Source: Egibacteraceae bacterium (GTDB taxonomy: Bacteria > Actinomycetota > Nitriliruptoria > Euzebyales > Egibacteraceae). Taken from it: 64,000 nucleotides of DNA. The translations under genes and the position numbers were made by a program. Below, one piece after another: positions 37,793 to 55,205 of this stretch. Where the stretch lies: assembly GCA_035540635.1 (NCBI GenBank), contig DATLGH010000003.1:62001-126000 (forward strand). Reading direction: 5' to 3'. Within the stretch, counting starts at the first letter, position 1. Each line of letters opens with the position of its first letter. Under the pieces are notes generated by a model that saw only the letters and a program-made list of their open reading frames with translations, had not been told where the DNA came from and did no database searches.

Positions 37793-39169
37793 TCACCGGT
37801 CTAGACGGTGGGGCAAGCGCCGGCTCATCGTGGCGGCCGTCTTTCCTGCCCCCACGGCGCTCGGGGCGATGGGCATCGGCGGAGGCGGCCGCGCGCTGCA
37901 GCAGGACGGCGCGTTCGCGGTCGTTGCGGGTGAGCGCCGCGGCCCGCGCGAACTCGCCTCGCGCCTCGTCGTGACGGTCGAGCTTCGCGAGCAGGTCGCC
38001 GCGGACGCTCGGCAGCAGGTGGTAGCCCTGCAGCGCGGGCACCCCGGCCAGCGTGTCGACGACAGCCAGACCGTCGGCGGGACCGGAGGCCATGGCGACG
38101 GCGACTGCGCGGTTGAGTTCGACGACGGGCGATGCCGTCCGGTCGGCGAGCGCGGCGTAGAGCTCGGCGATGCGCGACCAGTCGGTGTCTTCCGGCGTGC
38201 GCGCGCGTGCGTGGCAGGCGGCGATCGCCGCCTGCAGCGTGTAGGTGCCGGGCACGCCGGCGAGCGCCTCGGCGCGCTCGAGGGGGCCAGGCCGCGGCGG
38301 ATGAGCAGGCGGTCCCACCGGGCCCGGTCCTGGTCGCCGAGGAGGATCCCCTCGCCGCCGGGTCCGACCCGCGCGCGCAGGCGTGAAGCCTGCAGCTCCA
38401 TCAGCGCGACGAGGCCGTGGACCTCGGGCTCCCCAGGCAGCAGCCCGGCGACGATCCGGCCGAGGCGCAGGGCCTCCTCGCACAGTTGGGGGCGGATCCA
38501 CTGCTCACCGGCCGTGGCGGCGTAGCCCTCGTTGAAGATGAGGTAGACGACCTCGAGCACCGACGGCAGCCGGTCGGCCAGCTCGTCACCACGGGGCACC
38601 GCGAACCGCACCCGCTTCTCCGCGAGCGAGCGCTTCTCGCGGACGATGCGCTGCGCGACCGTCGCCTGGGCGACGAGGAACGTCCGGGCGATCTCGTCCG
38701 TGCGCAGCCCGCCCAGCAGCCGCAGGGTCAGCGCGACCCGTCCCTCGGCCGCCAGCACGGGGTGGCAGGCCATGAACACGAGCCGCAACAGGTCGTCGCC
38801 GATGTCGTCGACCGCGTCGACGAGGTCGTCCTCGGCGCCGTGCTGGCGGAGCTCGAGGTCCCGGCCGAGCTCGGTGACCTTGCGCTCGAGCCGCGCGTTG
38901 CGGCGGAACTGGTCGATCGCGCGGCGGCAGGCGACCGCCATGAGCCAGGCGCCGGGGTTGTCGGGGACGCCTGACTGCGGCCACCGCTCGAGCGCGGCCA
39001 CGAGCGCCTCCTGAGCGAGCTCCTCGGCCAGGCCGATGTCGCGGACCTTGCGCGTCAGCGCCGCGACGAGCCGCGCCGACTCGATCCTCCAGACCGCCTC
39101 GACGGTGCGGTGCGCCGAGGCGTGGGGCCCACCGCCGGGGCGGGAAGAAGGATGATCGGCAGCCGTCAC
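37793..39169 (-). pseudogene. ECF42-type sigma factor with TPR-like tail, one-base frameshift
   Basis: GTG 39169 overlaps the DGPF gene stop by GTGA. Sigma region 2 (AEELAQEALVAALERWPQSGVPDNPGAWLM, CRRAIDQFRRNARLERK) and region 4 (LTLRLLGGLRTDEIARTFLV, QRIVREKRSLAEKRVRF) are intact. The C-terminal extension typical of ECF42 begins normally (IFNEGYAATAGEQWIRPQLCEEALRLGRIVAGLLP), but near 38284 GGCCTGGCCCCCTCGAG has lost one base; the tail continues in another frame as ERAEALAGVPGTYTLQAAIA and ELNRAVAVAMASGPADGLAV. Either a recent mutation or a sequencing error. The sigma domains themselves remain translatable. Confidence 0.75.
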
Positions 39170-39648
39170 GGCGACCGATCAAACCACTTCCGCCGCCCGG
39201 CTGCAGTCGGGGCGCCCGGGCTGCTCCTGCTGCCGCGCACCTCCTCGCGCAGGCGCTCCTCCTGCTCCCGCAGCTCGGGCGTGAACGCCTCGCCGAAGTC
39301 CTCGGCCTCGAACACCGGCCGGATCTCGATCTCGGTGTGCACCCCTTCGGGGTTGGGGACGCGCTTGACCCACTCGATCGCCTCCTCCAGCGACGAGACC
39401 TGCCACAGCCAGTAGCCGGCGATCAGCTCCTTCGACTCGGTGAAGGGCCCGTCGACCACCGTGGTTCTCGGACCGTCGAAGCGCACACGGGCGCCCTTGG
39501 CGCTTGGCTGCAGCCCCTCACCGTCGAGCATGACGCCCGCCTTGACGAGCTCATCGTTGAAGTTGCCCATCGCCGCGAGCAGTCCCTCGCTGGGCAGCTT
39601 CCCGGCCTCGCTGTCCTCGGTCGCCTTCATCAGCACCATGACGCGCAT
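39166..39648 (-). CDS. DGPF-domain (YCII-related) protein, ECF42 partner
   Basis: 160 residues from ATG 39648 with aggaggaaa upstream. YCII/DGPF fold: MRVMVLMKATEDSEAGKLPS, FNDELVKAGVMLDGEGLQPS, and the diagnostic VVDGPFTESKELIAGYWLWQV followed by EAIEWVKRVPNP. DGPF genes sit next to ECF42 sigma factors in many actinobacteria; here the sigma gene follows with a 4-base overlap. A basic Ser/Arg-rich tail (about 130-160) is extra. No anti-sigma factor is present, consistent with regulation by the sigma C-terminal extension. Confidence 0.88.
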   Translation of the reverse strand: MRVMVLMKATEDSEAGKLPSEGLLAAMGNFNDELVKAGVMLDGEGLQPSAKGARVRFDGPRTTVVDGPFTESKELIAGYWLWQVSSLEEAIEWVKRVPNPEGVHTEIEIRPVFEAEDFGEAFTPELREQEERLREEVRGSRSSPGAPTAAGRRKWFDRSP

Positions 39649-39920
39649 CCTGGTTTCCTCCTGGTCCGTTGGCCTGCCGCCCCGCCTTCGACGTGGCTCG
39701 GGCGTCGCTTCTACCCATGCGTCGAGCAACGCTGGCTCAGATCGATACCTCGGGAGAAAGAAAGCTCACTGCCGTGCAATCAGGGTTCCCCAGGGCGCCT
39801 GGGCCTCGAGGTCATGGTGAGAACGCACCATCCGCCGGCCGTCCGCGGATGGTGCGTTCGCGCGAAGCTGGCGGCCGCCGTCCTCGTTACGGTGTGGACG
39901 ACCCAGATGAGGAGGGCGCC

Positions 39921-40723
39921 ATGTCCAGCACCGCGGAGACGTTCGAGCTGACCCGGGAACAGGCGGAGTTCTACGAGGCCAGGTTCGTGCCGGCCCTGTT
40001 CGCCGAGTGGGCGCCGCTGCTCGTCGACGCGGCCGCAGTCTGCCCGGGCAGCTCGGTGCTCGACGTGGCGTGCGGCACCGGCGTCGTTGCTCGTACCGCC
40101 GCCGCACGCGTCGGCGAGGAGGGCAGGGTCGTGGGCGTCGACCGGTCTCAGGGGATGCTGGAGGTCGCGGGCCAGCTCGCACCTCAGGCGCAGTTCCGCC
40201 TCGCAGACGCCGAACAGCTGCCGTTCGAGGACGGGTCGTTCGACATGGTGCTGTGCCAGGCTGGGCTCATGTTCTTCTCTGACCCGGCGCCGCGCTGGCG
40301 GAGATGGCCCGCGTAATCACGCCCCAGGGGACTGTGGGTGTCCAGGTGTGGGGCCGGCTGGAGTCCAGCCTCGGCTACCTGCCGTTCGTGGAGGTCGCCA
40401 GCCGCCACGCCGGTCGCGAGGCCATCGGCCTACTGACCACCTACTTCGTGCACGGCGACCTCGACCGGCTGAAGGAGCTGTTCGCCACGGCGGGACTGGA
40501 GGTGACAGCGACGACCACGCGGCTGGGCGCGATGCGTTTCGACTCCATCGACGAGTTCGTCACCATCGAGGTGGAAAGCACCCCGCTGGGTGGCATGCTC
40601 GACGACGCCACCCTGGAGGCCATCCGCGCCGACGCCCGCCAGGCTCTGGACCGGTTCGTCACGGACGGCGGCGTGTCGGTGCCGATAGAGGGCCACATCG
40701 TGGTCGCCCGGCGGGCCGGATGA
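39921..40723 (+). pseudogene. Class I SAM methyltransferase split by one-base frameshift
   Basis: ATG 39921 opens a UbiE/Methyltransf_11-like enzyme: motif I SVLDVACGTGVVARTAA, motif II VVGVDRSQGMLEVA, LADAEQLPFEDGSFDMVLCQAGLMFF. Near 40293 CCGCGCTGG appears to lack one base (expected DPAPALAEM), so the frame stops at 40316, while the rest continues in another frame as MARVITPQGTVGVQVWG... to 40723. With one base restored the protein is about 267 residues, normal for the family. Probably a sequencing error or very recent mutation. Its end overlaps the next small frame (ATGA). Confidence 0.75.
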
Positions 40724-40884
40724 CCGCGATCCATGCCGTCTACCGCCCGCGCCACGGGCTGTCCGAGCCCGCGCGGCAGATCTTCGTCGGCTCCGGACCG
40801 CTGAATGTCCTGGGATACGGGCCCTACGAGGCGCTGCTTGCCGACCACGGTCTGTCCTTCGCACGCCGACAGTGGGTATGCTGA
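40720..40884 (+). CDS. Small unassigned protein, 54 aa
   Basis: ATG 40720 overlaps the methyltransferase stop (ATGA). Predicted peptide includes YRPRHGLSEPARQIFVGSGP and NVLGYGPYEALLADHGLSF, with no family recognised. Coupling supports translation, but its short length and the disturbed surroundings leave it doubtful; it may be a C-terminal remnant. Confidence 0.3.
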   Translation: MTAIHAVYRPRHGLSEPARQIFVGSGPLNVLGYGPYEALLADHGLSFARRQWVC

Positions 40885-42618
40885 TTGCCCGCTACCGGCG
40901 TCGAGCCTACGCTGCCTGCCAGCGGGAAGCGTTCGACGTCGGGGAGGTGGCTGGTCATCGCCGGCACCGCGGCACATGACCCGCTCACGGGAAGGGCGGG
41001 TCCCGCCGCCGCGTGGCGGGAGGCCTACGCGCGGCTGGCGTCGCGCGACCGTGCCTCTCTCACCGCCGCCGAGCTCGACACCCTCGCAGAGGCCCTGTTC
41101 TGGATGGACCGGCCTGTCGATTCCGTCGGGGTGCGCCGCGACGCCTACGCCGCCCACGTCGCCGCCGGCGACTCCGACGGGGCGGCGATGGCGGCGTGGC
41201 AGCTGTACTACGAGCACGCGCTCGTCGGCGAGCTCGCGGTCGCCAGCGGCTGGCTCGAGCGCGCGTGCGAGCACGTCGGCGCCCGTGACGGGTCGGTGGT
41301 CGACGGTTTCGTCGCCGTCGCCGAGGCCGACCGCGACCATCTCGAGGGCCGGCTCGACGACGCGCTCGCATGCGCCGGTCGGGCCGTGGCCATCGGGCGG
41401 ACCAGCGGCGACCGGGATCTGCTTGCCATGGCGTTGCAGACCAAGGGCCGGCTCCTCGTGGCCCTGGATCGGGCCGCCGAGGGGATCTCCCTGCTCGACG
41501 AGGCCATGGTCGCCGTCATCAACGGCGAGCTCAGCCTGCTGTTCACCGGGTGGGTGTACTGCTCGGTGCTCGGCGTCTGCCACGACATCGCCGACCTGCG
41601 ACGCGCCGCGGAGTGGACCGACGCAGCCCTGCGCTGGTGCGAGACCGTGAACGAGGGTCTGCTCTACCCCGGTCTGTGCCGCATCCACCGGGTCGAGCTC
41701 GCCTGCCTGACCGGCGCCTGGAGCACCGCCGAGGCCGAAGCGCGTCGGGCCTGCGACGAGCTGCTCTCCCACGACCCGCGCTACGCCGGCGAGGCGGTCT
41801 ACCTGGCGGCCGAGCTTACCCGCCTGCGCGGTGACCTCGACGCCGCCGAGGCCGCCTTCCAGCGCGCGCACGCGCTCGGCCGCGAGCCACAACCCGGACT
41901 CGCGCTCGTGTGGCTCGCACAGGGCCGTGGCGCTGCCGCCGTCGCCGCGCTGCGCCTGGCGCTGCAGCCGGGCCCGTCAGCGCCCCTGGCGCGGTCGGCT
42001 CTGCTGGCCGCGCTCGTCGAGGCCGAGATCGCCGCCGGTGACCTCGACCATGCCGAGGAGGCTCTCCACGGGCTCGCCGCCGTGGCGCAGCGGACCGCCA
42101 GCCCCTACCTGGAGGCCACCGCCGCCGCGGCAGACGGCCTGGTCCGGCTCGCCCGCGGCGATGCCGCAGGGGCGCTGCTGCAGCTGCGCCGCGCGCGCGC
42201 GCTGCTGCAGGACCTGGCGATGCCCTACGAGGCGGCCCGCGTGCAGGTGGCGATCGGCATGGCCTGCGACCGTGCCGGCGACCGCGGTACCGCTGAGCTC
42301 GAATTGCGCGCCGCGGAGGCCACCTTCGCCCGCCTCGGCGCCCGCGCGGACCACGAGCGGGCACGTGGCCTGCTCGGCCAGACGCCGGCGTTGGGACCGC
42401 TCACGCCGCGCGAGGCGGAGGTCCTCCGCCTCGTCGCCCAGGGCCGCACGAACCGGCAGATCGCCACGGACTTGGTGATCAGCGAGCACACCGTCTCCCG
42501 ACACCTCACGAACATGTTCACCAAGCTGGGCGTGACCTCACGAGCGGGCGCTACCGCCTACGCCTACGAGCACCACCTCGTCCCAGGTCAGGCTTCACCT
42601 CGGCCGTCCTCGGCGTGA
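40885..42618 (+). CDS. LuxR-family regulator with TPR-like sensor region
   Basis: About 577 residues if TTG 40885 is the start; no better start with a ribosome site is visible, so the N-terminus is uncertain. Residues about 30-480 are helical TPR-like repeats (for example LAEALFWMDRPVDSVGVRRDAY, ALQTKGRLLVALDRAAEGISLLDEA, LTRLRGDLDAAEAAFQRAHALG). The C-terminal LuxR helix-turn-helix is complete: LTPREAEVLRLVAQGRTNRQIATDLVISEHTVSRHLTNMFTKLGVTSRAGATAYAYEH. No AAA ATPase motif, unlike MalT. Probably controls nearby metabolism; target unknown. Confidence 0.85.
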   Translation: MPATGVEPTLPASGKRSTSGRWLVIAGTAAHDPLTGRAGPAAAWREAYARLASRDRASLTAAELDTLAEALFWMDRPVDSVGVRRDAYAAHVAAGDSDGAAMAAWQLYYEHALVGELAVASGWLERACEHVGARDGSVVDGFVAVAEADRDHLEGRLDDALACAGRAVAIGRTSGDRDLLAMALQTKGRLLVALDRAAEGISLLDEAMVAVINGELSLLFTGWVYCSVLGVCHDIADLRRAAEWTDAALRWCETVNEGLLYPGLCRIHRVELACLTGAWSTAEAEARRACDELLSHDPRYAGEAVYLAAELTRLRGDLDAAEAAFQRAHALGREPQPGLALVWLAQGRGAAAVAALRLALQPGPSAPLARSALLAALVEAEIAAGDLDHAEEALHGLAAVAQRTASPYLEATAAAADGLVRLARGDAAGALLQLRRARALLQDLAMPYEAARVQVAIGMACDRAGDRGTAELELRAAEATFARLGARADHERARGLLGQTPALGPLTPREAEVLRLVAQGRTNRQIATDLVISEHTVSRHLTNMFTKLGVTSRAGATAYAYEHHLVPGQASPRPSSA

Positions 42619-43948: not shown

Positions 43949-44815
43949 TCATCCCGCCTCGCCGCCGCCCGCCTCCGCGGGCGCCCGCTGGGCGAGGACG
44001 AGCCCGAAGCCGGGCAGCACCTCGCGCCAGGAGGCGCGGGCGAACCCGGCGTCGGCCAGCAGCCCACGGAACTCGTCGGGGGTGTGGAAGCCGACCCATC
44101 CGGGGTCGGTCCGGCGGGCCAGGGGGGCGCTCGCGGCGTTGTACCAGGCGGGTCCCGGGTCGACGATGGCGTAGATGCCTCCGGGCCGCAGGCTCTCCCG
44201 CACGGCCGCGGCCGTTCGCGCGGGCTCCGGGAAGTGGTGGTGGGCGAGGCAGGTGAACGCGGCGTCGAAGGCGCCGGCGAACGTTGGCGGGAGGTCCCCG
44301 GCGTCGGCCTGAAAAAAGGCGGTGTGGTCGAGCCCGTGCGCGCGTGCGGCGCGGTGCGCGGTGACGACCATGCCCGCGGCGAGGTCGACGCCGACGACCT
44401 CGCCGCGCGGTACGAGACCGGCGAGGCGCTGCAGCTCGCGACCCGGGCCGCACCCGAGGTCGAGCACCCGCGCGTCCGACGGGAGCAGCGGGGCCAGCAC
44501 GTCGAGCGCCTCGTCGACGATGGGGCGGGAGAAGGGCTGGACGTACGCCTCGTAGATCTCCGCCATCTGGTCGAAGGCGGCGACGAGGTGGTCGTGGCGG
44601 CTCCCGCCGTCGAGCACCACCGGGTCCGGGCACGCGACCGAGAACCGCGGTCCGAGCCCCGGCCGGGGCACGGAGACGGGGTCCTCGCCCGTCACACGGC
44701 TGCGCAGCCCGAGGGTCCGCTTCAGCGCCTGCGCGGGGTACAGCACCGTGGCGGCGTACGACCACATCGCGCCGACGAGGACGCCGCCAGCGACGGGGTC
44801 GTGGCCGTCCGCCAT
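43949..44815 (-). CDS. SAM-dependent methyltransferase, last gene of isoprenoid-linked operon
   Basis: 288 residues. ATG 44815 overlaps the previous stop (TGATG); a GTG one codon upstream is also possible. An N-terminal extension (about 1-60) includes a hydrophobic stretch (AGGVLVGAMWSYAATVLYPA) that could touch a membrane. The class I fold follows: ARVLDLGCGPGRELQRL (motif I), GEVVGVDLAAGMV, FDAAFTCLAHHHFPEPARTA, LRPGGIYAIVDPGPAW. All SAM-binding motifs look intact. Tenth gene of a co-oriented array starting with a prenyl diphosphate synthase; possibly methylates an isoprenoid or lipid product (inference). Confidence 0.85.
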   Translation of the reverse strand: MADGHDPVAGGVLVGAMWSYAATVLYPAQALKRTLGLRSRVTGEDPVSVPRPGLGPRFSVACPDPVVLDGGSRHDHLVAAFDQMAEIYEAYVQPFSRPIVDEALDVLAPLLPSDARVLDLGCGPGRELQRLAGLVPRGEVVGVDLAAGMVVTAHRAARAHGLDHTAFFQADAGDLPPTFAGAFDAAFTCLAHHHFPEPARTAAAVRESLRPGGIYAIVDPGPAWYNAASAPLARRTDPGWVGFHTPDEFRGLLADAGFARASWREVLPGFGLVLAQRAPAEAGGGEAG

Positions 44816-45366
44816 CACCCGGCCGCGTCGGGCCGGCGCCGCACGACGATGGGCACCGGCGTGGCCGTGAGCCCCGGGATGGTCAGCTCGCCGCGGTAGC
44901 TGCGGTCGGCTTTCAGGTCCTCGCCGATGATCGCGGTCACCCGGACGAGCATCTGCTGGCCGGGTTCGAGGGTGACGACGGCGGGCTCGAACGCGAGCGG
45001 CGGGCGCACCTCGGCGCCGTCCTCGTCGGTGAACGCCGACGCCGCCACCGGGGCGGAGACCGGCCCGTCGAGATCGTTCTCGACCAAGAACACGCCGAGG
45101 GCGGAGCCGCCCGCCTCGGCTTCCAGGACCATCGCGGCGACGGCCGGCGACTCCTCCGGGCGGGTCCGCTGGGGTGCCCGGGCCGGCGTCCCGCGAGCGG
45201 CCATGGAGCGAAGGTCGCCGAGGCGCACGGGCAGCCGCAGGTCGTCGGCGAGCTGGCGCAGCGTCCGCAGGTAGTCCACCGTGAGCTGCCCGAGCGCGCT
45301 GTAGTAGCGGGCGTTGGCCTCGGTGGCCCGGCGCACCGCCTCCTCAAGCGACAGCGCTTCCGCCAC
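44815..45366 (-). CDS. Helix plus beta-sandwich protein (operon gene 9)
   Basis: 183 residues from GTG 45366, three bases after the upstream stop. N-terminal amphipathic helix (RYYSALGQLTVDYLRTLRQL), then a linker and a beta-sandwich (LGVFLVENDLDGPVSAPVAA, PAVVTLEPGQQMLVRVTAII, DLKADRSYRGELTIPGLTATPVPIVVRR). The same order of elements, including P.xLxLxPxe and Dl.Ag.Y.GxLxxPG, occurs in the protein at 49250, so the two look paralogous. No signal peptide, no catalytic motif. Possibly a structural or scaffold protein of the operon's product. Confidence 0.75.
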   Translation of the reverse strand: MAEALSLEEAVRRATEANARYYSALGQLTVDYLRTLRQLADDLRLPVRLGDLRSMAARGTPARAPQRTRPEESPAVAAMVLEAEAGGSALGVFLVENDLDGPVSAPVAASAFTDEDGAEVRPPLAFEPAVVTLEPGQQMLVRVTAIIGEDLKADRSYRGELTIPGLTATPVPIVVRRRPDAAG

Positions 45367-45369
45367 CGG

Positions 45370-45954
45370 TCAGCCCTGCCTCGGGCCCGAACCGCAGGGA
45401 CGCTGGCAGTAGAAGTGGTCGTACCAGTGGTGCACCTGGTCGGCGCAGTCGTCGACGCTGACCTCGTGGCACGAGTCGCCTCCGCGCCGGATGGTCGACA
45501 CGGTCCAGCGGAGCACGTGCACGCGGCACCCGCGCACCCACACCGTGTGCGTGCGGTCTCCGGACGCCGCGTCGGTGGGTACGGCGGCCGACACGACGAA
45601 CGTGGCGTCCTCGTACGGGTCGATCGTGGCCTTGGCGGGGTCGACCGTGACGCCGCTGCCCTTGACGTCGACGCCGACGGCCTGGGACGCCGGGCCGCAG
45701 TTCGTCACGGTGATGCGCAGGACGGCGGTGCCCCCGGGGCACACGTGGCTGCGCACGGGCCCTAGTCGCCGCGGATACCAGCACGGGTCGGGGATCTCGC
45801 AGCCGCAGCCGCCGGCCGCCCGCGCGAGCAGGGCGCCCGGGTCGGGCAGCACCACGCCCGACAGCAGGTCGCGTCCCAGGCGGGCGCTCCTCGTCAGCAG
45901 GTCGCCGACGGCCTCGGCCGCGCCGGCGAGCGTCGTGGGGCGCGTGGTGGTCAT
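45370..45954 (-). CDS. Cys-rich beta-sandwich protein (operon gene 8)
   Basis: 194 residues. ATG 45954 overlaps the upstream stop (ATGA). N-terminal helix (GAAEAVGDLLTRSARLGRDLLSG), Cys cluster (GGCGCEIPDPCWYPRRLG), a beta-sandwich (AVLRITVTNCGPASQAVGVD, GVTVDPAKATIDPYEDATFV) and a Cys/His-rich tail (CHEVSVDDC, HHWYDHFYCQRPC). Ten Cys in total without any export signal suggest metal binding rather than disulfides (inference). The P-A-x-A-T-I-D-P-Y strand pattern resembles the other beta-sandwich proteins of the operon. Confidence 0.72.
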   Translation of the reverse strand: MTTTRPTTLAGAAEAVGDLLTRSARLGRDLLSGVVLPDPGALLARAAGGCGCEIPDPCWYPRRLGPVRSHVCPGGTAVLRITVTNCGPASQAVGVDVKGSGVTVDPAKATIDPYEDATFVVSAAVPTDAASGDRTHTVWVRGCRVHVLRWTVSTIRRGGDSCHEVSVDDCADQVHHWYDHFYCQRPCGSGPRQG

Positions 45955-46664
45955 CGCGGCTGCTCCTTCGGTGGGGCCGGCTCCGCCTCGACGGTGATGG
46001 CGTAGGTCCAGCCGGCCAGGTGCCAGATGGCCGTGTAGGTGCGCCCGGGCTGCAGCCGGTCCGAGGCGCTCAGCGTGAGGGCGATCTCCGCCACGCCGCC
46101 GGGCTCGACGGGTCCTGCACCCTGGTCGACGCCGATGCGCAGCAGGCCGCCGTGCTCGCCGGCGAGGCCGTCCATCAGCCGGTCGAGGCGCGCGCTGCCC
46201 TTCGCCTTGTCGTCGCGGAGCGCCCCCCCGATGGCACGGTCTGCGCCGTCCACGGGGAAGAGGCCGACCGCGTCCGCGCGGGGCACCTCGACGGCGACGT
46301 TGCCCTCGTTCACGAGGGTCAGGCGCTCGGTCGCGCGTCCACCCGGCGCGACGCGGAGGCGCAGCTGCGCCGGGTACAGCTCGACCGCGCGGTTCGGCTC
46401 CACCTCGACGACCGCCGGGTAGCGCTCCTCCCCCGCCGTCAGGGTCCCCTCGTACATGCCCGCGGGGGTCGTCGTCGGCAGGGTGAGGCGCACGAGCGTG
46501 CCGGGGCCGCTCGGGGCTAGGAGGACGGCGACCGCCTCGGGGTCGGGCAGGTCGACCTCGAGCGCGAACGACGCCTCGCCGAGCGCGAGGGGGACGAAGG
46601 CCTCCACGGCGTCGGGCAGTCCCCGGAAGCGCAGCGGCCCGGTCCGGTTGGTCGCCGTGGCCAT
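45951..46664 (-). CDS. Double beta-sandwich protein (operon gene 7)
   Basis: 237 residues from ATG 46664. Two Ig-like modules: about 25-95 (LVRLTLPTTTPAGMYEGTLTAGEERYPAVVEVEP) and about 95-235 (AQLRLRVAPGGRATERLTLVNEGNVAVEV, GRTYTAIWHLAGWTYAITVEAEP). The recurring ending AG/PG-x-Y-x-G-x-L......P.xxVxxEP is shared with the genes at 44815 and 49250. A short helical insertion (DKAKGSARLDRLMDGLAGEHG) interrupts the second module. No signal peptide or catalytic motif. Unknown function. Confidence 0.72.
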   Translation of the reverse strand: MATATNRTGPLRFRGLPDAVEAFVPLALGEASFALEVDLPDPEAVAVLLAPSGPGTLVRLTLPTTTPAGMYEGTLTAGEERYPAVVEVEPNRAVELYPAQLRLRVAPGGRATERLTLVNEGNVAVEVPRADAVGLFPVDGADRAIGGALRDDKAKGSARLDRLMDGLAGEHGGLLRIGVDQGAGPVEPGGVAEIALTLSASDRLQPGRTYTAIWHLAGWTYAITVEAEPAPPKEQPR

Positions 46665-46667
46665 GGG

Positions 46668-47090
46668 TCAGCCCTCTCCGGGCTGCTCTGGGCCTGCGGG
46701 CTGGTCGACGTCGAGAACGCGGGTCCGGCTGGGCCCGCAGCGCTCGCAGGGATTCGGCCGGTAGGGCTCGGTGATGACCTGCGCCTCGCCGCACAGGCGC
46801 AGCGCGAGCAGTGGCAGTCCGAGCACCGACAAGCCGACGGTGAAGTCGGCCGGCAGGTGCCCGCGGATCGAGGGGAGCTCCTTGATGCGCAGGGACGCGT
46901 CGAGGGGGGTGAGCGTGAGCGTCACCGGGTTGACGGTCACGGGGTTGAGGGTGACCGGGTCCACGCCCAGGCGGATCTTCGGGAGGGTGTCGACGTTGAT
47001 GTGGAAGGTGCTGGGGATGCCGCTCACGCTGACGGGCCCTATGGGCCCGGTGATCTTGCTCACGAACGGCTGTGGGATGCTCACACCCAC
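46668..47090 (-). CDS. Beta-rich repeat protein with C-terminal CxxC (operon gene 6)
   Basis: 140 residues from GTG 47090, after ggaaaggaag. Beta-strand-rich with short internal repeats (SKITGPIGPVSVSGIPSTF; PVTLNPVTVNPVTLTLTPLD), a hydrophobic strand region (FTVGLSVLGLPLLALRL), and a C-terminal NPCERCG motif. No transmembrane helix long enough to be certain and no signal peptide. The only sizeable gap inside the operon (54 bases) precedes it. No family recognised. Confidence 0.68.
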   Translation of the reverse strand: MGVSIPQPFVSKITGPIGPVSVSGIPSTFHINVDTLPKIRLGVDPVTLNPVTVNPVTLTLTPLDASLRIKELPSIRGHLPADFTVGLSVLGLPLLALRLCGEAQVITEPYRPNPCERCGPSRTRVLDVDQPAGPEQPGEG

Positions 47091-47144
47091 CGGGCTTCCT
47101 TTCCCCGGGACGTCACCGCATCGTCCTCCGTGCCGGAATGTCCG

Positions 47145-47702
47145 TCAAGGCCGGGGTGGGTCGTCGCCGTCGGGGAGCAGGTCGAGGCGCTCGAGCAGCC
47201 TGTCCTCCGCCTCGGCACGGCCGCCCGGGTACCGCGTCGGGGGCCGCGGCGCGGGAGCGGTCGGGCGCCCCGCCCGACCGGGGTCCGAGCGGAAGTCGCG
47301 GGCCAGGTCCTGCAGCGCGGGGCTGCGGGCCGATGCGTCGAGGAGGATCTCGATCGCCTGGAGCATCCGCACCGCGGCCTCGTCGGAGGCCTGCACGCGC
47401 AGGCGGCCGGTGAGGACCGCCTCCGTGACCTCGAGGTAGCCGTCGAGCAGGTGGAGCACCGTGGCCCGGTCGGTGGCGCCGTGCCCGTCGGGCTGCGCCC
47501 CCGCCGCGGCGGGCGCGGCGACGAGGCCGGCGGCCGTGAACGCCACGTCGACGGTCTCGTCGTCGAGGGTGATGCGCGCCTGCCGGGAGCCCACGACCGC
47601 ACGCAGGCGCGCGAGCGCCGCCGCGTCCGCGTCGCCGAGGCGCCGCACGAGCTCGCCGACGTACTCCCCCAGCGTCCGGTGGGGCGGGCCGTCAGTCGAC
47701 AT
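47145..47702 (-). CDS. SCP2-like lipid-binding protein (operon gene 5)
   Basis: 185 residues from ATG 47702, overlapping the previous gene by 11 bases. An SCP2-type fold is suggested by ARITLDDETVDVAFTAAGLV, ATVLHLLDGYLEVTEAVLTGRLRVQA and AVRMLQAIEILLDASARSPALQDLARDF, a pattern seen in actinobacterial sterol-carrier-like proteins. The C-terminal 40 residues are Pro/Arg-rich. Such folds hold acyl or isoprenoid chains, fitting an operon with a prenyl synthase. Assignment is by pattern only. Confidence 0.68.
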   Translation of the reverse strand: MSTDGPPHRTLGEYVGELVRRLGDADAAALARLRAVVGSRQARITLDDETVDVAFTAAGLVAAPAAAGAQPDGHGATDRATVLHLLDGYLEVTEAVLTGRLRVQASDEAAVRMLQAIEILLDASARSPALQDLARDFRSDPGRAGRPTAPAPRPPTRYPGGRAEAEDRLLERLDLLPDGDDPPRP

Positions 47703-48690
47703 GCTCGAAGACCCCCAGACCCTCGGCGGACAGCTCCGTCCCGCCAACCCGCCCGCGGCAGCGGAACGTGCCGGGCAGCTCGTGGATGAACCCGTACCCG
47801 CGCCGGACGGGGTCGGCCGCGATGATCTGCCCCGCCCCGTCGACGCGGAAGTCGACGGCCACGTCGTCCCCGCCCTCGCGCGCCTCGATGCGCACGGACG
47901 CGGGCAGGTCGGGGGCCGCGCGGTCCTGGTGCAGCGCGGCCATCGCGCCGGGCAGCCGGCGCAGCGGCGCGGTCCAGCGGCCGTGCCTGCGCACCGTCAC
48001 GCTCGACCCGACGAACGTCCGGCGGATCCCCGGCGCCCGCACGAGCAGGAGCGGGCGCCCGGGGCGGCGACGGGCCCGGTCGGTGGTGCGGGCGAGCACG
48101 ATCGCCGGACCCTCGGGGGCGAGGAAGCTCCCCCAGTCCCAGCCGAGGTCCTCGCCCCAGTGCCAGCGGCCCCAGTTGTGGTCGTGGTAGCCGCTGGCTG
48201 CCTCGAGCGCCAGCGTCCGGTCGCCGACGCGGACGGTGCCGGAGACGGCCAGCCGCGGCACGGCGTACCAGGCCACCCACCCGGGGCCGAGTGGCATCGG
48301 CGCGTCGGCGACGTGGGCGGGGCCGACGGCCACGCCGGTGACGCGCACGTCCACCGCGTCGTCGCGCAGGCGGAGGGCGGCGTGCACCCGCCCCGTCGCG
48401 TGGTCGACGCCGAGCGCGGCGTCCTCGAGCGCGATGCTCGCCGTGCCGAGCGTCGCCGCGGCGGCCTCGCGCACGATCACGCCTCCCGCCCAGCCGGCCC
48501 CCGGCAGGTGGACGAGCCCGGCGGCGGCGACCCGGGAGCGCGGGTCCCGGGGCGGCCCGTGCAGCGACACGTTCACCAGGCCGACGGCGCCGGCTGCGTG
48601 GTCGAACACGTTGAGGTGCAGCCACTCCTTGTACGCGGCGGCTGCGGGGTCGGTCGGGTGCGGCGGGCGGAGGGGGTCGAGCGGGATCAC
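47692..48690 (-). CDS. CrtC/AttH-like (hydroxyneurosporene synthase-type) protein (operon gene 4)
   Basis: 332 residues. GTG 48690 overlaps the upstream stop (GTGA). Two lipocalin-like barrels with the family signature SGYHDHNWGRWHWGEDLGWDWGSF at about residues 165-190 and EWLHLNVFDHAAGAVGLVNVSL near the N-terminus. The CrtC family hydrates carotenoid end double bonds; AttH relatives act on hydrophobic substrates. The HDHNWG motif is intact. No signal peptide. In this operon it is the best candidate for modifying the prenyl product; actual chemistry unknown. Confidence 0.8.
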   Translation of the reverse strand: MIPLDPLRPPHPTDPAAAAYKEWLHLNVFDHAAGAVGLVNVSLHGPPRDPRSRVAAAGLVHLPGAGWAGGVIVREAAAATLGTASIALEDAALGVDHATGRVHAALRLRDDAVDVRVTGVAVGPAHVADAPMPLGPGWVAWYAVPRLAVSGTVRVGDRTLALEAASGYHDHNWGRWHWGEDLGWDWGSFLAPEGPAIVLARTTDRARRRPGRPLLLVRAPGIRRTFVGSSVTVRRHGRWTAPLRRLPGAMAALHQDRAAPDLPASVRIEAREGGDDVAVDFRVDGAGQIIAADPVRRGYGFIHELPGTFRCRGRVGGTELSAEGLGVFEHVD

Positions 48691-49253
48691 CGCAGCAGGG
48701 GGCCCGACGCGAGGCCGGGTGCGCCACCGCCGGGGCGCACGCCCCGCGACGGCAGCGTCGGCGCGGCGATCGCCTCGACGGCCCGGCTGACCTCGACGCC
48801 GAACGCCCACATGCCGAGGAGGTAGTCGGCGAACGTGGCGGGTGCCGGCGCGTCGTCCGTCTCCGCCCGCTCGGCGGGCAGCGGCAGGAGGGCGAGGGTC
48901 TCCTCGAGGTCGTCGGCCAGCAGGAGGGCGAGGTCGTTGCGGAGGTGGTCGAGCACCGGGCTCGGCGGCGCCTCCGCCATGCGGTCGATGCCCAGCGCCG
49001 CCCACACGGCCTCGCCGTTGCCCCCGATCCGGCCGGCGGTGATGGCCTCGTGCAGCCGCGCGCCCTCGGTCGAGCGCGCCACCTCCCGTCCGAGCGCGGC
49101 GAAGCCCGCGGTCAGCGAGCCGACCGCGTCGGCGCCCGACATCAGCCGCAGGCTCGCGAGGCGTGCGGCCAGCGACGCGACGAGGCTGACGGTCGTCCGC
49201 CCCGCCTCGCCGGGCACGTCGACGAGCAGGGCGCGGGGGGCATCGTCGGTCAC
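48687..49253 (-). CDS. Helical unknown protein (operon gene 3)
   Basis: 188 residues. GTG 49253 overlaps the upstream stop (GTGA) and its own stop overlaps the next start. Mainly helical (TTVSLVASLAARLASLRLMS, SLTAGFAALGREVARSTEGA, HLRNDLALLLADDLEETLALL, DYLLGMWAFGVEVSRAVEAIA), with a Gly-rich turn GRIGGNGEAVWAALG and a flexible Gly/Pro tail. No Cys, no membrane helix. No family recognised. Confidence 0.7.
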   Translation of the reverse strand: MTDDAPRALLVDVPGEAGRTTVSLVASLAARLASLRLMSGADAVGSLTAGFAALGREVARSTEGARLHEAITAGRIGGNGEAVWAALGIDRMAEAPPSPVLDHLRNDLALLLADDLEETLALLPLPAERAETDDAPAPATFADYLLGMWAFGVEVSRAVEAIAAPTLPSRGVRPGGGAPGLASGPLLR

Positions 49254-49762
49254 GCGCGAGCCTCCGTCGCGGGGTCGGCGGCGGGCTGCTCGGGCTCGAC
49301 GTGCAGCCGCAGCGCGACGCCGGCGCTGCGGAAGCCGGGCAGGAGCAGGGCCCCGGAGTAGGTGCCGGCGGGCAGGTCGGCCGGGAGGGGCAGGCCGACC
49401 GCCATCGTCGCGACCTCGTCGGGGGCCAGGAGCAGCGACGGCGGGTCGATCTGCGCGTCGGGGAACCAGGTCGTGCCGTCGGGCGTGACGAGGGGGGATA
49501 CGGTCGGGCTGACCATGCAGTGCGCCCGCTGGCGGTTCTCGATCTCGACCTCGACGCGGACGTCGCTCCCGGCGGAACCGGCCGCCTCGAGCGGCGCCCC
49601 GTCGGGCCGCAGGACCGTGCCGGGCACCGGTGGCGCGACCGCCGCCTGCATCCGCCGGAGGTAGCGCAGGGTCTCCTCCGCCAGGCGCGCCTGGAAGTCC
49701 GCCTGCAGCCGCAGGAGGTCGTGGAGTGGCCCGCCGTCGTCGTCCGAGGGCTCGTTGGTCAC
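49250..49762 (-). CDS. Helix plus beta-sandwich protein (operon gene 2)
   Basis: 170 residues from GTG 49762 (a TTG two codons upstream is less likely). N-terminal amphipathic helix (LHDLLRLQADFQARLAEETL), linker, then a beta-sandwich (VRVEVEIENRQRAHCMVSPT, PSLLLAPDEVATMAVGLPLP, DLPAGTYSGALLLPGFRSAG). Architecture and C-terminal strand pattern match the protein at 44815. Follows the prenyl synthase by 16 bases. No signal peptide or catalytic motif; possibly a shell, scaffold or carrier component. Confidence 0.75.
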   Translation of the reverse strand: MTNEPSDDDGGPLHDLLRLQADFQARLAEETLRYLRRMQAAVAPPVPGTVLRPDGAPLEAAGSAGSDVRVEVEIENRQRAHCMVSPTVSPLVTPDGTTWFPDAQIDPPSLLLAPDEVATMAVGLPLPADLPAGTYSGALLLPGFRSAGVALRLHVEPEQPAADPATEARA

Positions 49763-49778
49763 GCGCAAGGGCTCGGCC

Positions 49779-50837
49779 TCATCTCATCCGCTCGATCACA
49801 TAGTGCAGCATCTCGCGCAGGAACCGGCGGTCGTCCGAGTCGGGGGCGGACCCGAGCGCGCGGGCATCGGCCTCGAGCGCCCGCTCGCTGTACTCGCGGG
49901 CGATCCTGCGCCCGTGCCCGAGCGAGCCCGCCGCGACCATGGCGCGCAGCAGCCAGGCCACCTCGTCGGCGGGCTTCGCCTTGCGGGGGGTGTGCAGCAG
50001 CGTGAGCGCCCGGTCCCGGTCATCCGGTCCGGCGGTGCGGACGAAGTGCAGGAGCATCACGGTGCGCTTGCCCTCCAGCAGGTCCCCCGCGATCTCCTTG
50101 CCGTACAGCACCTCGTCGGCTTCGAGGTTCAGCAGGTCGTCCTGGACCTGGAACGCGATGCCGGCGAGGGAGCCCAGCTCGACGAGCGGCAGGAGCTCCT
50201 CGTCCAGCGGCGCTTCGGGCCCGGGCGGGCTGCCACAGATGACGCCGATACGCAGCGGTGCGATGACCGTGTACCAGCAGGTCTTCTTGTAGGCCATGCG
50301 CACGTAGGAGCGGTCCGTGAGGTCGAAGCGGTGCTCGGCGATCCAGCCCAGCTCGAGCGCCTGTCCCTCGGCGGACTCGCGCGCCATGCGCTCGACCTCG
50401 CGGAGCACGAGCAGCGCCTTGCGCATGCCGATCGCCGACACGTTCTCGAGCAGCGGGCCCATGGCGAGCACGTTCGTCGCGTCCCCCACGTTGACGGCCA
50501 CGGGCGCCCCGTGCGAGCGCAGCATCGTGATCTTGCCCCGCCGGAACTCCGAGCCGTCCTCCACGTCGTCGTGCAGGAGGAAGGCGTTGTGGAACAGCTC
50601 GAGGGCGGTCGCCGACAGCAGGGCCTGCTCGGTGCGCCCGCCGACCGCGCGGCACGCGGCGAAGCAGATGGCCGGGCGCAGGCCCTTGCCCTCGCGGAAG
50701 GGGTAGTCGGCGAGGAGGTCGTAGAGCGGCCCGTACCCGGTACGCCGGCGCTCGGCGAAGATGCGCTCGAGCTCGGCCAGCACGTCGCGCCGGGCGTCGC
50801 CCAGCACCCGTTCGATCAAGGCCACGTCGTACGCCAC
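49779..50837 (-). CDS. Trans-polyprenyl diphosphate synthase (operon gene 1)
   Basis: 352 residues from GTG 50837. Condenses IPP with allylic diphosphates. First Asp-rich motif FLLHDDVEDGSEFRRGK is complete (DDVED); second motif is QVQDDLLNLEA, with Asn in place of the last Asp; GDLLEGKRTVMLLH is the usual following motif; FREGKGLRPAICFA is the N-terminal substrate-binding GK.LRP. The altered second motif may change IPP handling or product. It leads a ten-gene array that continues to 43949. A GC hairpin (50890-50909) and a 232-base divergent region precede it. Confidence 0.9.
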   Translation of the reverse strand: MAYDVALIERVLGDARRDVLAELERIFAERRRTGYGPLYDLLADYPFREGKGLRPAICFAACRAVGGRTEQALLSATALELFHNAFLLHDDVEDGSEFRRGKITMLRSHGAPVAVNVGDATNVLAMGPLLENVSAIGMRKALLVLREVERMARESAEGQALELGWIAEHRFDLTDRSYVRMAYKKTCWYTVIAPLRIGVICGSPPGPEAPLDEELLPLVELGSLAGIAFQVQDDLLNLEADEVLYGKEIAGDLLEGKRTVMLLHFVRTAGPDDRDRALTLLHTPRKAKPADEVAWLLRAMVAAGSLGHGRRIAREYSERALEADARALGSAPDSDDRRFLREMLHYVIERMR

Positions 50838-51577: not shown

Positions 51578-52984
51578 TCATGATTCTGGTGGGATGTTCT
51601 GGTTGACACGGAAGATGTTGTCAGGGTCCCATCTCCGTTTGAGGGCCTGGAGGCGGGCGAACGTCTTGCTGCCATAGGCGTGCTGGACGCGGCTGTGCCC
51701 CTCATCCCCGAGGAAGTTGACGTAGACACCGCCGGCCGATGCGGTCTGGGCCTCTTCGAACAGTGCGTGCGTATGGGCTGTGTGCAGCGGTGACTGCGCG
51801 GGATCGACCCATCGGGTGTTGACGTTGAGCACGAAGGGGGCGTGCCGGTGAGAGTAGGCGGTCTCCGCCTCGCCGACACGGGCGACGGCGCCGCCCATGG
51901 TGGCGATCTTGAAGTCGGACAGCGGAGAGGTGTGCGACACGGCGTAGCGCGCGAGGACGTCGACGATGTCATCGTCGAGGTTCGCGAGATACTCAGCCTT
52001 CCAGTAGTTGCAGAAGCCCGGCTCCCAGCTGGCGTCGAACATCGCCTGAAAGTCTGCGTAGGACCGTATCGTCAGGGCGTCGGCCGCCGGTTGACCGAAG
52101 GCGCGCAGCGGCGCGAGCGCGGCTTGACCCTCCTCGATTGGCCCGGCGTAACAGGCTGCAAGGGCGATGATGGGACGGCCGTAGAGCTCGGCGGGCAGGA
52201 ACGGGACACGAGGAGCGGTGCGGCAGACGGCGATGACCGTCAGGGCGTCATCAGCCTCGGGAGCGAACTCGCGGAACAGGCGCAGGACGTCTCGGGCCTG
52301 ATCGGCCGGCCAGACCACCAGCCCGCACAGCACCCGTGGGCCGACCCGATGGAGCCGGAACTCGAACGACGTCACGATGCCGAAGTTGCCGCCGCCGCCG
52401 CGCAATCCCCACAGCAAGTCCTGGTTCTCGCGGCTGCAAGCACGCACGATCCGACCTTCTGCGGTGAGCAGGTCGGCGGCGACCAGGTTGTCGCAGGCGA
52501 GGCCGAAGGCGCGCTGCAGCCAGCCGATGCCTCCGCCAAGGGTCAGCCCGGCGACCCCGGTCGTGGACATGATCCCGAGCGTGGTCGCAAGGCCATGCTC
52601 TTGCGCCTGTCGGTCGAACTCGGCCCCTACGGCACCGGGTCCTACCACAGCAAGGCGGCGCGCAGGGTCGACGGACACCGACGCCATGGGCCGCAGGTCG
52701 AGCACCACCCCGCCGTCGCACGTCCCGAACCCAGCGACGTTGTGGCCACCTGCCCGCACCGCAACCACAAGTCCACGTTCTACGGCGAAGGCAAGCCCCC
52801 GCTTGACGTCCCTGACGTCCCGGCAGCGCACGATCGCGGCGGGACGCCGGTCAATGCTGCCGTTCCATACCCTGCGGGCTTGGTCGTAGCGAGGATCCGG
52901 CGGGCGGATGACCTCGCCCCGGATGTGGCGCGCCAGGACGTCGAGGTCCCGGTGGCTGACCTGGTGCCTGGTTTCGGTCGACAT
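51578..52984 (-). CDS. Berberine-bridge-type FAD-linked oxidoreductase
   Basis: 468 residues from ATG 52984. FAD_binding_4 domain with the covalent-flavin His motif VAVRAGGHNVAGF, GVVLDLRPMASVSVDP, GLTLGGGIGWLQRAFGLACD and LLWGLRGGGGNFGIVTSFEFRLH, and a C-terminal BBE segment (YVNFLGDEGHSRVQHAYG, LKRRWDPDNIFRVNQNI). The family oxidises sugars or secondary metabolites using oxygen or other acceptors. No signal peptide. Divergent from the HxlR regulator at 53108, which probably controls it. Confidence 0.9.
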   Translation of the reverse strand: MSTETRHQVSHRDLDVLARHIRGEVIRPPDPRYDQARRVWNGSIDRRPAAIVRCRDVRDVKRGLAFAVERGLVVAVRAGGHNVAGFGTCDGGVVLDLRPMASVSVDPARRLAVVGPGAVGAEFDRQAQEHGLATTLGIMSTTGVAGLTLGGGIGWLQRAFGLACDNLVAADLLTAEGRIVRACSRENQDLLWGLRGGGGNFGIVTSFEFRLHRVGPRVLCGLVVWPADQARDVLRLFREFAPEADDALTVIAVCRTAPRVPFLPAELYGRPIIALAACYAGPIEEGQAALAPLRAFGQPAADALTIRSYADFQAMFDASWEPGFCNYWKAEYLANLDDDIVDVLARYAVSHTSPLSDFKIATMGGAVARVGEAETAYSHRHAPFVLNVNTRWVDPAQSPLHTAHTHALFEEAQTASAGGVYVNFLGDEGHSRVQHAYGSKTFARLQALKRRWDPDNIFRVNQNIPPES

Positions 52985-53107
52985 GCTCGCCCTCCAGCCA
53001 GCTGCGATACGTGGACCCTGCTCTCACCATCGACCCGTCTCTTGCTCAGGGCCAGTGAAGGATCTGTACTAGGAGATGCTGGAGACGAACGCGGGTGGGA
53101 GGCGACG

Positions 53108-53460
53108 GTGGGCGAGTACGGGCAGTTCTGTCCGGTGGCCAAGGCCGCCGAGGTGCTGGATCAACGATGGACGCTGCTGGTCGTTCGGGAGCTCGTCGCT
53201 GGCAGCACGCGGTTCAACGACATCCATCGGGGGGTCCCGCGCATGTCGCGGACCTTGCTGTCGCAACGGCTGAAACAGCTCGTCCGGCAAGGACTGGTCG
53301 AGCGCCGGGAGGACGACGAGGGTCCGGTGTACCACCTCAGCGACGCGGGGCATGAGCTCCACGAGGTCATAGAGGTTCTTGGCAAGTGGGGCATTCGGTG
53401 GATGAACTCCCTCGGCGGACAGGACCTCGACCCCGCACTGCTGGTCTGGGACATGTCATC
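53108..53460 (+). pseudogene. HxlR-family regulator, 3' truncated at a junction
   Basis: GTG 53108 after gggagg. A complete HxlR winged helix is readable: FCPVAKAAEVLDQRWTLLVV, GSTRFNDIHRGVPRMSRTLL, RLKQLVRQGLVERREDDEGP, VIEVLGKWGIRWMN, ending DPALLVWDM at about 53455. Related actinobacterial proteins continue with an SCP2-like ligand domain after this point, but here the DNA switches abruptly to NRPS/PKS sequence in another frame. DNA binding may still work (about 115 residues), with an aberrant tail running on to 54349. Confidence 0.65.
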
Positions 53461-54387
53461 GCCCAGGTCGAGCGGGCGTTCGGACGCCAGCTGCCCGTGT
53501 CGAGCCTCCTCGAGGGGCGCACGATCGAGCGGCTGGCGTGCCTGCTGCGCGACGAGCCCGCCGCCCGCTCACCCCTCGTGGCGATCCACCCGCGCGGTGC
53601 GCACCCGCCGGTCTTCTGGGTGCATCCGCTCAGCGGAACCGTGTACTGCTACGTCGAGCTCGCCGAGGCCCTGGGCGACGACCGGCCGTGCTTCGGCCTT
53701 CAGGCCACCGGCTTCGCCGGAGGGAAACCCCAGACGCGCATCGAGGACATGGCCCGCCGCTACGTGCAGGAGGTGCAGCGCCTGCAGCCCGCGGGGCCCT
53801 ACCGGCTGGGCGGCTGGTCGATGGGCGGGGTGGTCGCCTTCGAGATGGCGCGTCAGCTGGAGGAGCGCGGCGAGCGGGTGGCGCTGCTCGCCCTGCTCGA
53901 CCCGGCGCCCCCCGGCGCCGGCGCGGACGGCGACGACAGCGCCGCCGGAGAGCCGCTGCTGGGCTTCGTGCAGCACCTGGGGCTGTGGCCGGACGACCTC
54001 ACCGTGTTCGGCAGTGGCTTGTCGCAGCTCGACCCGTCCGAGCAGCTCGCCTGCGTGCTCGAGCAGGCCCGGCGGGCGGGACTCGTGCCACCGGACCTCG
54101 AGGTGTCGGAGCTCGACCGGCAGCTGGCCGTGTTCACGAGCAACCTGGAGGCGATGCGCCACTACGCCCCGGCCCCCTACACCGGCCGGGTCACGCTCGT
54201 GGAGGCCGCCGGCTCACGGCACGGGCGCGCGATGCACGGGGCCCGCTGGGACGACCTCGCGCTCGGTGGGCTCGTCCGGCACACCGTTCCCGGCGACCAC
54301 TCCACGATGCTCCGCCGGCCTCACGTGGGCGTGCTCGCCGAGCGTCTGACCGCTTGTCTCCACGAGACGGGCGCGAGCACGCCATGA
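53456..54387 (+). CDS. NRPS/PKS terminal fragment: carrier-domain end plus thioesterase
   Basis: Begins abruptly with HVIAQVERAFGRQLPVSSLL and GRTIERLACLLRDE, the C-terminal half of a peptidyl/acyl carrier domain (the phosphopantetheine Ser region is missing), then a full type I thioesterase: VFWVHPLSGTVYCYVELAEA, catalytic Ser in LGGWSMGGVVAFEMA, Asp in LLDPAPP, His in VPGDHSTMLRRP. No start codon with a ribosome site is evident; the first in-frame GTG is at 53494. This is the 3' end of a synthetase gene fused by deletion to HxlR. Its stop overlaps the PPTase start (ATGA). Confidence 0.7.
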
Positions 54388-55205
54388 GCCCGCGCGTCGC
54401 GCGAGCAGACGGGTGGGTCCGCCGGGGCGGTGCGGCCGGGCTGGCCCTGGTGGACGGCGACGTGCACGTATGGCTCGCCGACCTCGACCAACCGGCCTGG
54501 CCCCTGCTGCGGCTTGCCGACACGCTGTCGCCCGACGAGCGGGAGCGCGCGGAGCGCCTGCGCTTCCCCCGCGACCAGCGGCGCTTCACGGTCGCGAGAG
54601 GGGTGCTGCGCACGCTGCTCGCCGGCTACGTGCATCATGAGCCCGCGGCGGTGCGGCTGCGCTACGGGCCTCGGGGCAAGCCCGAGCTCGCCACGCCCTC
54701 GGGTGGCCCGCCGATCCGCTTCAACTCCTCACGTTCGCAGGGGCATGCGCTCTACGCCTTCGCGCGAGGCAGGCGCGTCGGCGTCGACCTCGAGGCGCTT
54801 CGCGCGGTGCCCGAGGCTGCGGCGATCGCCGAACGGTGGTTGCCCGTCCGTGAGCGGGACGCGGTGCTCGCCACCCCGCCCGACCGGCGGGACGAGGCGT
54901 TCCTGCGGAGCTGGACCTGCACGGAGGCGTATGTGAAGGCGCTGGGCGTGGGGCTCGTCGACGACCTCGAAGACATCGGGGCACCGCTCACCGTGGCGAC
55001 CCTGCCGACCCGCCGGGTCGCCGGTGGAGACGTGGGGGGGAGCGCCGGCTGGTCGCTGGAGGCGCTGCCCCCCGTCGACGGCTACGTCGCGGCGCTCGTG
55101 GTCGAGGCGGAAGACCACCGGCTGCGCTGCTGGGTCCTCGACGCTGCCGGCACCGCCGCCGTGTCCCCTATCCGGCGCGGCAGACGAAGTCGAGCTCGTA
55201 GGTAA
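54384..55205 (+). CDS. Sfp-type 4'-phosphopantetheinyl transferase
   Basis: 273 residues; ATG 54384 overlaps the thioesterase stop by 4 bases. Transfers phosphopantetheine from CoA to carrier proteins. Motifs: RFPRDQRRFTVARGVLRTLLAGY, YGPRGKPEL, IRFNSSRSQGHALYAFARG, the Mg-binding GVDLEAL and RSWTCTEAYVKALGVGL (WxxxEAxxKAxG; the usual WxxKEA Lys is Thr here). The overlap shows it was the last gene of the biosynthetic operon whose upstream part has been lost, so it may now serve other carrier proteins or be redundant. Confidence 0.88.
   Translation: MSPRVARADGWVRRGGAAGLALVDGDVHVWLADLDQPAWPLLRLADTLSPDERERAERLRFPRDQRRFTVARGVLRTLLAGYVHHEPAAVRLRYGPRGKPELATPSGGPPIRFNSSRSQGHALYAFARGRRVGVDLEALRAVPEAAAIAERWLPVRERDAVLATPPDRRDEAFLRSWTCTEAYVKALGVGLVDDLEDIGAPLTVATLPTRRVAGGDVGGSAGWSLEALPPVDGYVAALVVEAEDHRLRCWVLDAAGTAAVSPIRRGRRSRARR

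What the first reader, a model, noticed from the sequence alone, without database searches (positions are those of the whole stretch)
43949..50837. Ten-gene operon linking a prenyl synthase to a set of beta-sandwich proteins
Seen: ten same-strand genes, most overlapping by 1-11 bases, encode a trans-prenyl diphosphate synthase, a CrtC/AttH-like double barrel, an SCP2-like protein, a methyltransferase and six proteins I cannot assign. Four of these (49250, 45951, 45370, 44815) have beta-sandwich patterns; 49250 and 44815 share an N-terminal amphipathic helix plus a strand pattern ending in AGxYxGxLxxPG. None of the unassigned six shows a signal peptide. Known: prenyl synthases make allylic diphosphates, CrtC hydrates carotenoid ends, SCP2 folds hold lipids. 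Inference: an intracellular isoprenoid product is made, modified and held by a protein scaffold or shell. I know of no described system with this composition.
Basis: partly seen in the sequence, partly recalled or inferred. Interest (0 to 1): 0.9.

Follow-up and report, generated by a model that had tools for sequence, protein, structure and literature searches.

The report
Modular four-gene granule-like system in bacteria
Four small proteins of unknown family travel together between distant bacterial phyla, each time beside one of three different sets of lipid- or isoprenoid-type enzymes, which suggests an undescribed intracellular granule or scaffold whose enzyme contents are interchangeable.

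Summary
The ten-gene minus-strand operon is real. It consists of two modules. Genes 46668, 45951, 45370 and 44815 form a four-gene core that I found, in the same order, in 22 genomes of at least seven named phyla, and it is rare within the lineages sampled. In 21 of the 22 it sits beside one of three enzyme sets. Type A is the window's set (prenyl synthase, CrtC/AttH-like protein, SCP2-like protein, methyltransferase) and recurs in Cellulomonas, Roseobacter and one Gemmatimonadota-class genome. Type B is another prenyl synthase, a geranylgeranyl-reductase-like flavoprotein and a phasin-like helical protein. Type C is a DUF362 protein, a dehydrogenase, a small protein and a beta-propeller. Core proteins lack signal peptides. 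Several pair an N-terminal amphipathic helix with an Ig/PapD/MSP-like sandwich, and many carry lysine-rich tails, some with PAKKA motifs like nucleoid-binding PHA-granule proteins. PHA synthase is absent from 13 of 19 host genomes, classical encapsulin from 18 of 19. Best explanation: a coat and positioning module for a hydrophobic inclusion whose contents the enzyme payload sets. That is inference; no experiment exists. No Pfam/NCBIfam model at threshold, and no paper found, covers the core.

The parts
49779..50837 (-). P0001: trans-prenyl diphosphate synthase (type A payload); nearest solved structure is the GGPP synthase 1wmw
   Evidence: PF00348 E 1.2e-47; 1wmw E 3e-59; DDVED and DDLLN motifs and KTC present; 57-68% identity in Cellulomonas/Roseobacter
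49250..49768 (-). P0002: N-terminal amphipathic helix plus Ig-like sandwich, distant paralogue of P0009; PAKKA-type tail in Roseobacter homologues
48687..49253 (-). P0003: unassigned type A protein, the most conserved of the unassigned genes (72% mean column identity in type A)
   Evidence: no family match
47692..48690 (-). P0004: CrtC/AttH-like protein with a conserved YxDHNWGxWxWGxD motif
   Evidence: profile matches 2ich E 8e-4 and 7a0q E 0.005; weak Tocopherol_cycl/DUF2804 hits; alignment
47145..47702 (-). P0005: SCP2-like protein (weak match), start taken at the ATG giving MSTDGPPH
   Evidence: PF02036 E 0.036, below cut-off; conserved in type A
46668..47090 (-). P0006, core gene 1: repetitive beta-rich N-terminus of variable length and conserved C-terminal part IPxxRxHxPAxF...LCGEAQVITEPYxPNPCExCG
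   Evidence: AlphaFold2 confident only for the hairpin 76-106
45951..46664 (-). P0007, core gene 2: protein with Ig-like region(s)
   Evidence: hhalign to the P0009 family 95.9%
45370..45954 (-). P0008, core gene 3: N-terminal helix, PapD/MSP/ASH-like sandwich and near-invariant HHWYDHFYC tail with conserved Cys/His
44815..45366 (-). P0009, core gene 4: amphipathic helix plus Ig-like sandwich; lysine-rich tail in many homologues, not in this one
43949..44818 (-). P0010: class I SAM methyltransferase (type A payload), directly after the core in all the ten-gene loci
   Evidence: PF13649 E 1.8e-19; 50-59% identity in Cellulomonas/Roseobacter

Best explanation
The operon encodes a type of intracellular inclusion built from two modules. 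The four-gene core (46668, 45951, 45370, 44815) makes a set of cytosolic coat or scaffold proteins. Amphipathic helices at the N-termini of 44815, 45370 and the related 49250 lie on the surface of a hydrophobic body, the Ig/PapD/MSP-like sandwiches bind one another or docked enzymes, and in many species lysine-rich tails tether the body to the nucleoid, as PhaF and PhaM do for polyhydroxyalkanoate granules. The second module is a payload that decides what the body holds. Here it is a prenyl diphosphate synthase making a linear isoprenoid, a CrtC/AttH-like protein that probably adds water to or rearranges an end, a methyltransferase that probably caps it, and an SCP2-like carrier. Shown by sequence: the core, its association with different payloads, the protein architectures and their conservation. 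Inferred: lipid binding, the inclusion itself, nucleoid tethering, and each chemical step.
For: A core of four adjacent genes in one order across at least seven named phyla. It occurs with three different enzyme sets, A in 8 genomes, B in 8, C in 5, none in 1. Within type A the block core-plus-methyltransferase and the block of the other five genes are in opposite order in Cellulomonas/window and Roseobacter, so they behave as separable blocks. The N-terminal helix moment exceeds composition shuffles (p<=0.05) in 4 of 4 P0002, 11 of 18 P0009 and 9 of 20 P0008 homologues, against 0 of 18 for both P0006 and P0007. Basic tails on many P0009 homologues and literal PAKKA motifs on Roseobacter P0002; PAKKA lysines attach PHB granules to the nucleoid in PhaM, and PhaF combines an amphipathic granule-binding helix with a histone-like tail (PMC9049629). 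Type B carries an extra phasin-like helical protein with a basic tail, and a type C P0009 has Pfam Phasin as its best hit, below threshold (E 0.0017). No signal peptides by hydropathy. PHA synthase is absent from 13 of 19 hosts, so the body is not simply PHA.
Against: No experiment. Phasin matches are all below curated cut-offs, and the type B helical protein shows no excess helical moment in the N-terminal 50 residues tested. The window's own P0009 and P0002 lack the basic tail. Amphipathic helices also serve coiled coils. Type C has no prenyl enzyme nearby, so a shared cargo chemistry is not established. The near-invariant Cys/His tail of P0008 and the CxxC end of P0006 are not explained by a simple coat role.
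Confidence: 0.45

Rival explanations
1. A proteinaceous compartment: the core proteins assemble into a closed or lattice shell around payload enzymes, a functional counterpart of encapsulins with exchangeable cargo.
For: Same core with different enzyme payloads mirrors encapsulin logic (PMC8346489). Two Ruegeria plasmids carry a prenyl synthase about 41% identical to the Roseobacter type A homologue (sharing KKTCWY) in an operon with a family 1 encapsulin, and next to it a P0009-like sandwich protein.
Against: No HK97-fold match in the core; the P0008 model is a PapD/MSP-like sandwich with a helix. Classical encapsulin gene in only 1 of 19 host genomes and not linked. No recognised cargo-loading peptide.
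Confidence: 0.2
2. A soluble enzyme scaffold or chaperone set for natural-product biosynthesis: the sandwich proteins hold the enzymes in a multi-enzyme complex and pass hydrophobic intermediates, without any inclusion.
For: SCP2-like and CrtC/AttH-like payload proteins are of kinds that handle hydrophobic ligands (family knowledge); PapD/ASH-like domains are common protein-binding modules; rare, patchy distribution resembles secondary-metabolite clusters.
Against: Does not account for PAKKA-type tails or the phasin-like partner.
Confidence: 0.22
3. An envelope-associated system: the helices bind the inner face of the cytoplasmic membrane and the payload modifies a membrane isoprenoid such as a carotenoid, hopanoid or quinone.
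For: Squalene/phytoene synthase genes are present in 14 of 19 host genomes; CrtC-like and reductase-like enzymes act on membrane isoprenoids (family knowledge).
Against: No transmembrane segments or signal peptides in the core; basic tails like those of nucleoid-binding proteins fit the nucleoid better than the membrane.
Confidence: 0.1

Closest known systems
PHA granule (carbonosome) with phasins and the nucleoid-binding PhaF/PhaM proteins
   Same: Amphipathic helical surface proteins, lysine-rich PAKKA tails in some members, no signal peptides, clustered with biosynthetic enzymes
   Different: PHA synthase absent from 13 of 19 hosts; coat proteins carry Ig-like sandwiches; phasin models matched only below cut-off; payload is not a polyester pathway
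Family 2 encapsulins with polyprenyl transferase or terpene cyclase cargo
   Same: Exchangeable enzyme cargo, prenyl synthase in the operon, spread over many phyla
   Different: No HK97-fold shell gene found in the operon; P0001 scores 152.7 bits against a cut-off of 450 for the encapsulin cargo model
CrtC/AttH/tocopherol-cyclase superfamily and the plant plastoglobule (the plastoglobule comparison is recalled knowledge, not tested)
   Same: A CrtC/AttH-like protein beside prenyl-lipid enzymes; tocopherol cyclase is a plastoglobule enzyme
   Different: Only superfamily-level similarity; no plastoglobulin homologue was looked for
PapD/MSP/ASH-like immunoglobulin folds
   Same: Fold of the P0008 middle domain (Foldseek E about 1e-5)
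   Different: N-terminal helix and HHWYDHFYC tail were seen only in this family here

Membership tests
Phasins / PHA granule-associated proteins | Match to a phasin family model above its curated cut-off | tested here: not met
   Best: L079 P0009 to PF05597 E 0.0017, 18.9 bits against 28.8; L077 to TIGR02809 E 0.08
Phasins / PHA granule-associated proteins | Amphipathic granule-binding helix with basic PAKKA-type tail (PhaF/PhaM type) | tested here: inconclusive
   Helix and basic tail in Roseobacter P0002 and many P0009 homologues, tail absent in the window proteins; binding not testable
Phasins / PHA granule-associated proteins | PHA synthase in the same genome | tested here: not met
   PhaC_N found in 6 of 19 core-bearing genomes, not in the window's genome
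Encapsulin nanocompartments | HK97-fold shell protein in the operon | tested here: not met
   No Pfam match in the operon; PF04454 in 1 of 19 genomes, unlinked. PF04454 covers classical encapsulins; family 2 shells were not searched genome-wide
Trans-prenyl diphosphate synthase family | PF00348 over cut-off with both Asp-rich motifs | tested here: met
   162.7 bits against 27; DDVED and DDLLN
CrtC/AttH superfamily | Profile similarity to solved AttH/CrtC-domain proteins | tested here: met
   2ich E 8e-4, 7a0q E 0.005; superfamily level only
CrtC/AttH superfamily | Hydratase or cyclase activity | not testable with these tools
   needs an assay
SCP2 sterol carrier family | PF02036 over cut-off | tested here: not met
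   14.8 bits against 21.3

The most novel reading that the evidence does not exclude
A previously undescribed kind of bacterial organelle: a common four-protein coat and positioning module that several phyla have combined with interchangeable isoprenoid or other lipid pathways to make chemically different inclusions.
Probability: 0.4. Interest if true: 0.92.

Novelty: categorically new. Interest (0 to 1): 0.8.

Why it matters
Bacterial inclusions with a dedicated protein surface are known for PHA, triacylglycerol and a few other materials. A mobile coat module with swappable enzymes would be a new organising principle, would point to unknown isoprenoid products in soil and marine bacteria, and could be used to build designer lipid bodies. 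Cultured Cellulomonas hosts make the question testable now.

Tried and rejected
Core proteins as anti-phage defence: no PADLOC match except a generic methyltransferase domain on P0010. Core proteins as phage structural proteins: no PHROGs match of note. Conserved C-terminal glycine of P0006/P0008 as a processing signal: set aside on my reading, because it can arise from ribosome-binding sites embedded before an overlapping next start codon; not tested further. Plasmid homologues of P0006 and P0008: none. A PHA granule: PHA synthase absent in most hosts. Classical encapsulin shell: absent from 18 of 19 hosts. The AlphaFold model of P0006 is too weak for a fold search. Weak P0008 hits in other genomes of the window's phylum cover only the generic Ig-like domain and were not counted. 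The core tree is poorly resolved and cannot say whether payloads were swapped once or several times. Flanking genes outside the listed payloads are not conserved between lineages. Promoter and terminator scans found nothing. Literature searches found no matching system, but the library holds open-access papers only.

Full report
What is there. The ten minus-strand genes between 43949 and 50837 are real and tightly packed. Only the prenyl synthase and the methyltransferase pass Pfam cut-offs; the other eight are unassigned or weakly assigned.

The unit is conserved, and it is two modules. One scan of 84,980 genomes with the protein at 45370 gave 15 loci in Gemmatimonadota, Pseudomonadota, Actinomycetota, Chloroflexota, Fidelibacterota, Planctomycetota and Acidobacteriota. 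The genes 46668-45951-45370-44815 recur in that order beside it, and all 15 genomes hold the 46668 family. The Solirubrobacter locus lacks a recognisable 44815 homologue, and the Betaproteobacteria and Chloroflexi assemblies are broken inside the cluster. All ten genes recur in two Cellulomonas and four Roseobacter genomes. In Cellulomonas the order is that of the window; in Roseobacter the blocks 1-5 and 6-10 are exchanged. Targeted searches added three genomes from the Gemmatimonadota class and three from the Acidobacteriota class.

Three payloads. In 21 of 22 genomes the core lies beside one of three enzyme sets. Type A (8 genomes) is the window's set; the divergent Gemmatimonadota-class member (L064) has the prenyl synthase, CrtC/AttH-like and a weak SCP2-like gene but no recognised methyltransferase. 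Type B (8) has a different prenyl synthase, a flavoprotein whose best solved relative is digeranylgeranylglycerophospholipid reductase, and a helical basic-tailed protein. Type C (5) has a DUF362-containing protein of about 767 aa, an NAD-dependent epimerase or 3-beta-HSD-like protein, a small unassigned protein and a beta-propeller-like protein. Type C has no prenyl synthase in the stretch examined. No other flanking gene is shared between lineages. The system is rare: 1 of 396 genomes in the window's phylum had a full-length match, 1 of 296 in the Roseobacter family, 5 of 246 in the Gemmatimonadota class, 2 of 150 in the Cellulomonas family, 4 of 260 in the Acidobacteriota class. This pattern suggests horizontal transfer. 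The concatenated core tree groups payload types more than shuffled labels do, but its deep branches are unsupported.

The core proteins. 45370 folds as an N-terminal helix, a PapD/MSP/ASH-like sandwich and a tail with near-invariant HHWYDHFYC. 44815 and 49250 are related to each other and have an amphipathic helix followed by an Ig-like domain. 45951 shares the Ig-like region by profile comparison. 46668 has a variable repetitive beta-rich N-terminus and a conserved end with CxxC; its monomer model is confident only for a hairpin. None has a signal peptide or membrane segment by hydropathy. Many 44815 homologues and the Roseobacter 49250 homologues end in lysine-rich tails, the latter with literal PAKKA motifs; the window's own proteins lack the tail.

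How it probably works. The combination of amphipathic helix, basic tail and absence of export signals resembles PhaF and PhaM, which bind PHA granules and the nucleoid (PMC9049629). Phasin models themselves match only below cut-off, and PHA synthase is missing from 13 of 19 hosts. I therefore propose a coat and positioning module for a hydrophobic inclusion whose contents the payload makes. For type A, a linear isoprenoid made by the prenyl synthase (closest to a GGPP synthase) would be hydrated or rearranged by the CrtC/AttH-like protein, methylated, and handled by the SCP2-like protein. These chemical steps are inference.

Rivals. A closed protein compartment is possible: two Ruegeria plasmids place a related prenyl synthase and a sandwich protein like 44815 in or beside an operon with a family 1 encapsulin. 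But the core has no recognised shell fold and classical encapsulin is absent from 18 of 19 hosts. A soluble scaffold or a membrane-bound system also remains open.

Novelty. I found no named family at threshold for six of the ten proteins, and no described system with this composition, within open-access literature and the libraries available. The conserved modular core is established by sequence; its function is not.

Noticed in passing
L061 5109-10481 and L070 (Ruegeria plasmids): Family 1 encapsulin in an apparent operon with DUF3237, an FAD oxidoreductase and a prenyl synthase related to P0001, flanked by a P0009-like sandwich protein; a prenyl-associated family 1 encapsulin may deserve its own study.
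   Followed up: partly
L005, L006, L008, L078, L079: Type C payload: a DUF362 protein of about 767 aa with an epimerase, a small protein and a beta-propeller, next to the same core; its product is unknown.
   Followed up: partly
window 26311-27681: Flavoprotein in the window related to the type B geranylgeranyl-reductase-like enzyme (profile E 2e-48), unlinked to the operon.
   Followed up: no
window 51578-55205: Berberine-bridge-type oxidase, thioesterase and phosphopantetheinyl transferase upstream of the operon, suggesting a separate secondary-metabolite region.
   Followed up: no
window 37793-42618: Sigma-70 region 2 protein with DUF6596 (37793-39169) and a large LuxR-family regulator (40885-42618) downstream of the operon.
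   Followed up: no
L011 8844-10432 (Solirubrobacter soli): Minimal core of three genes without a recognised payload; the same genome has an unlinked encapsulin.
   Followed up: no
window 45370-45954 and 46668-47090: Near-invariant Cys/His residues at the ends of P0008 and P0006 could bind metal; no family matched.
   Followed up: no
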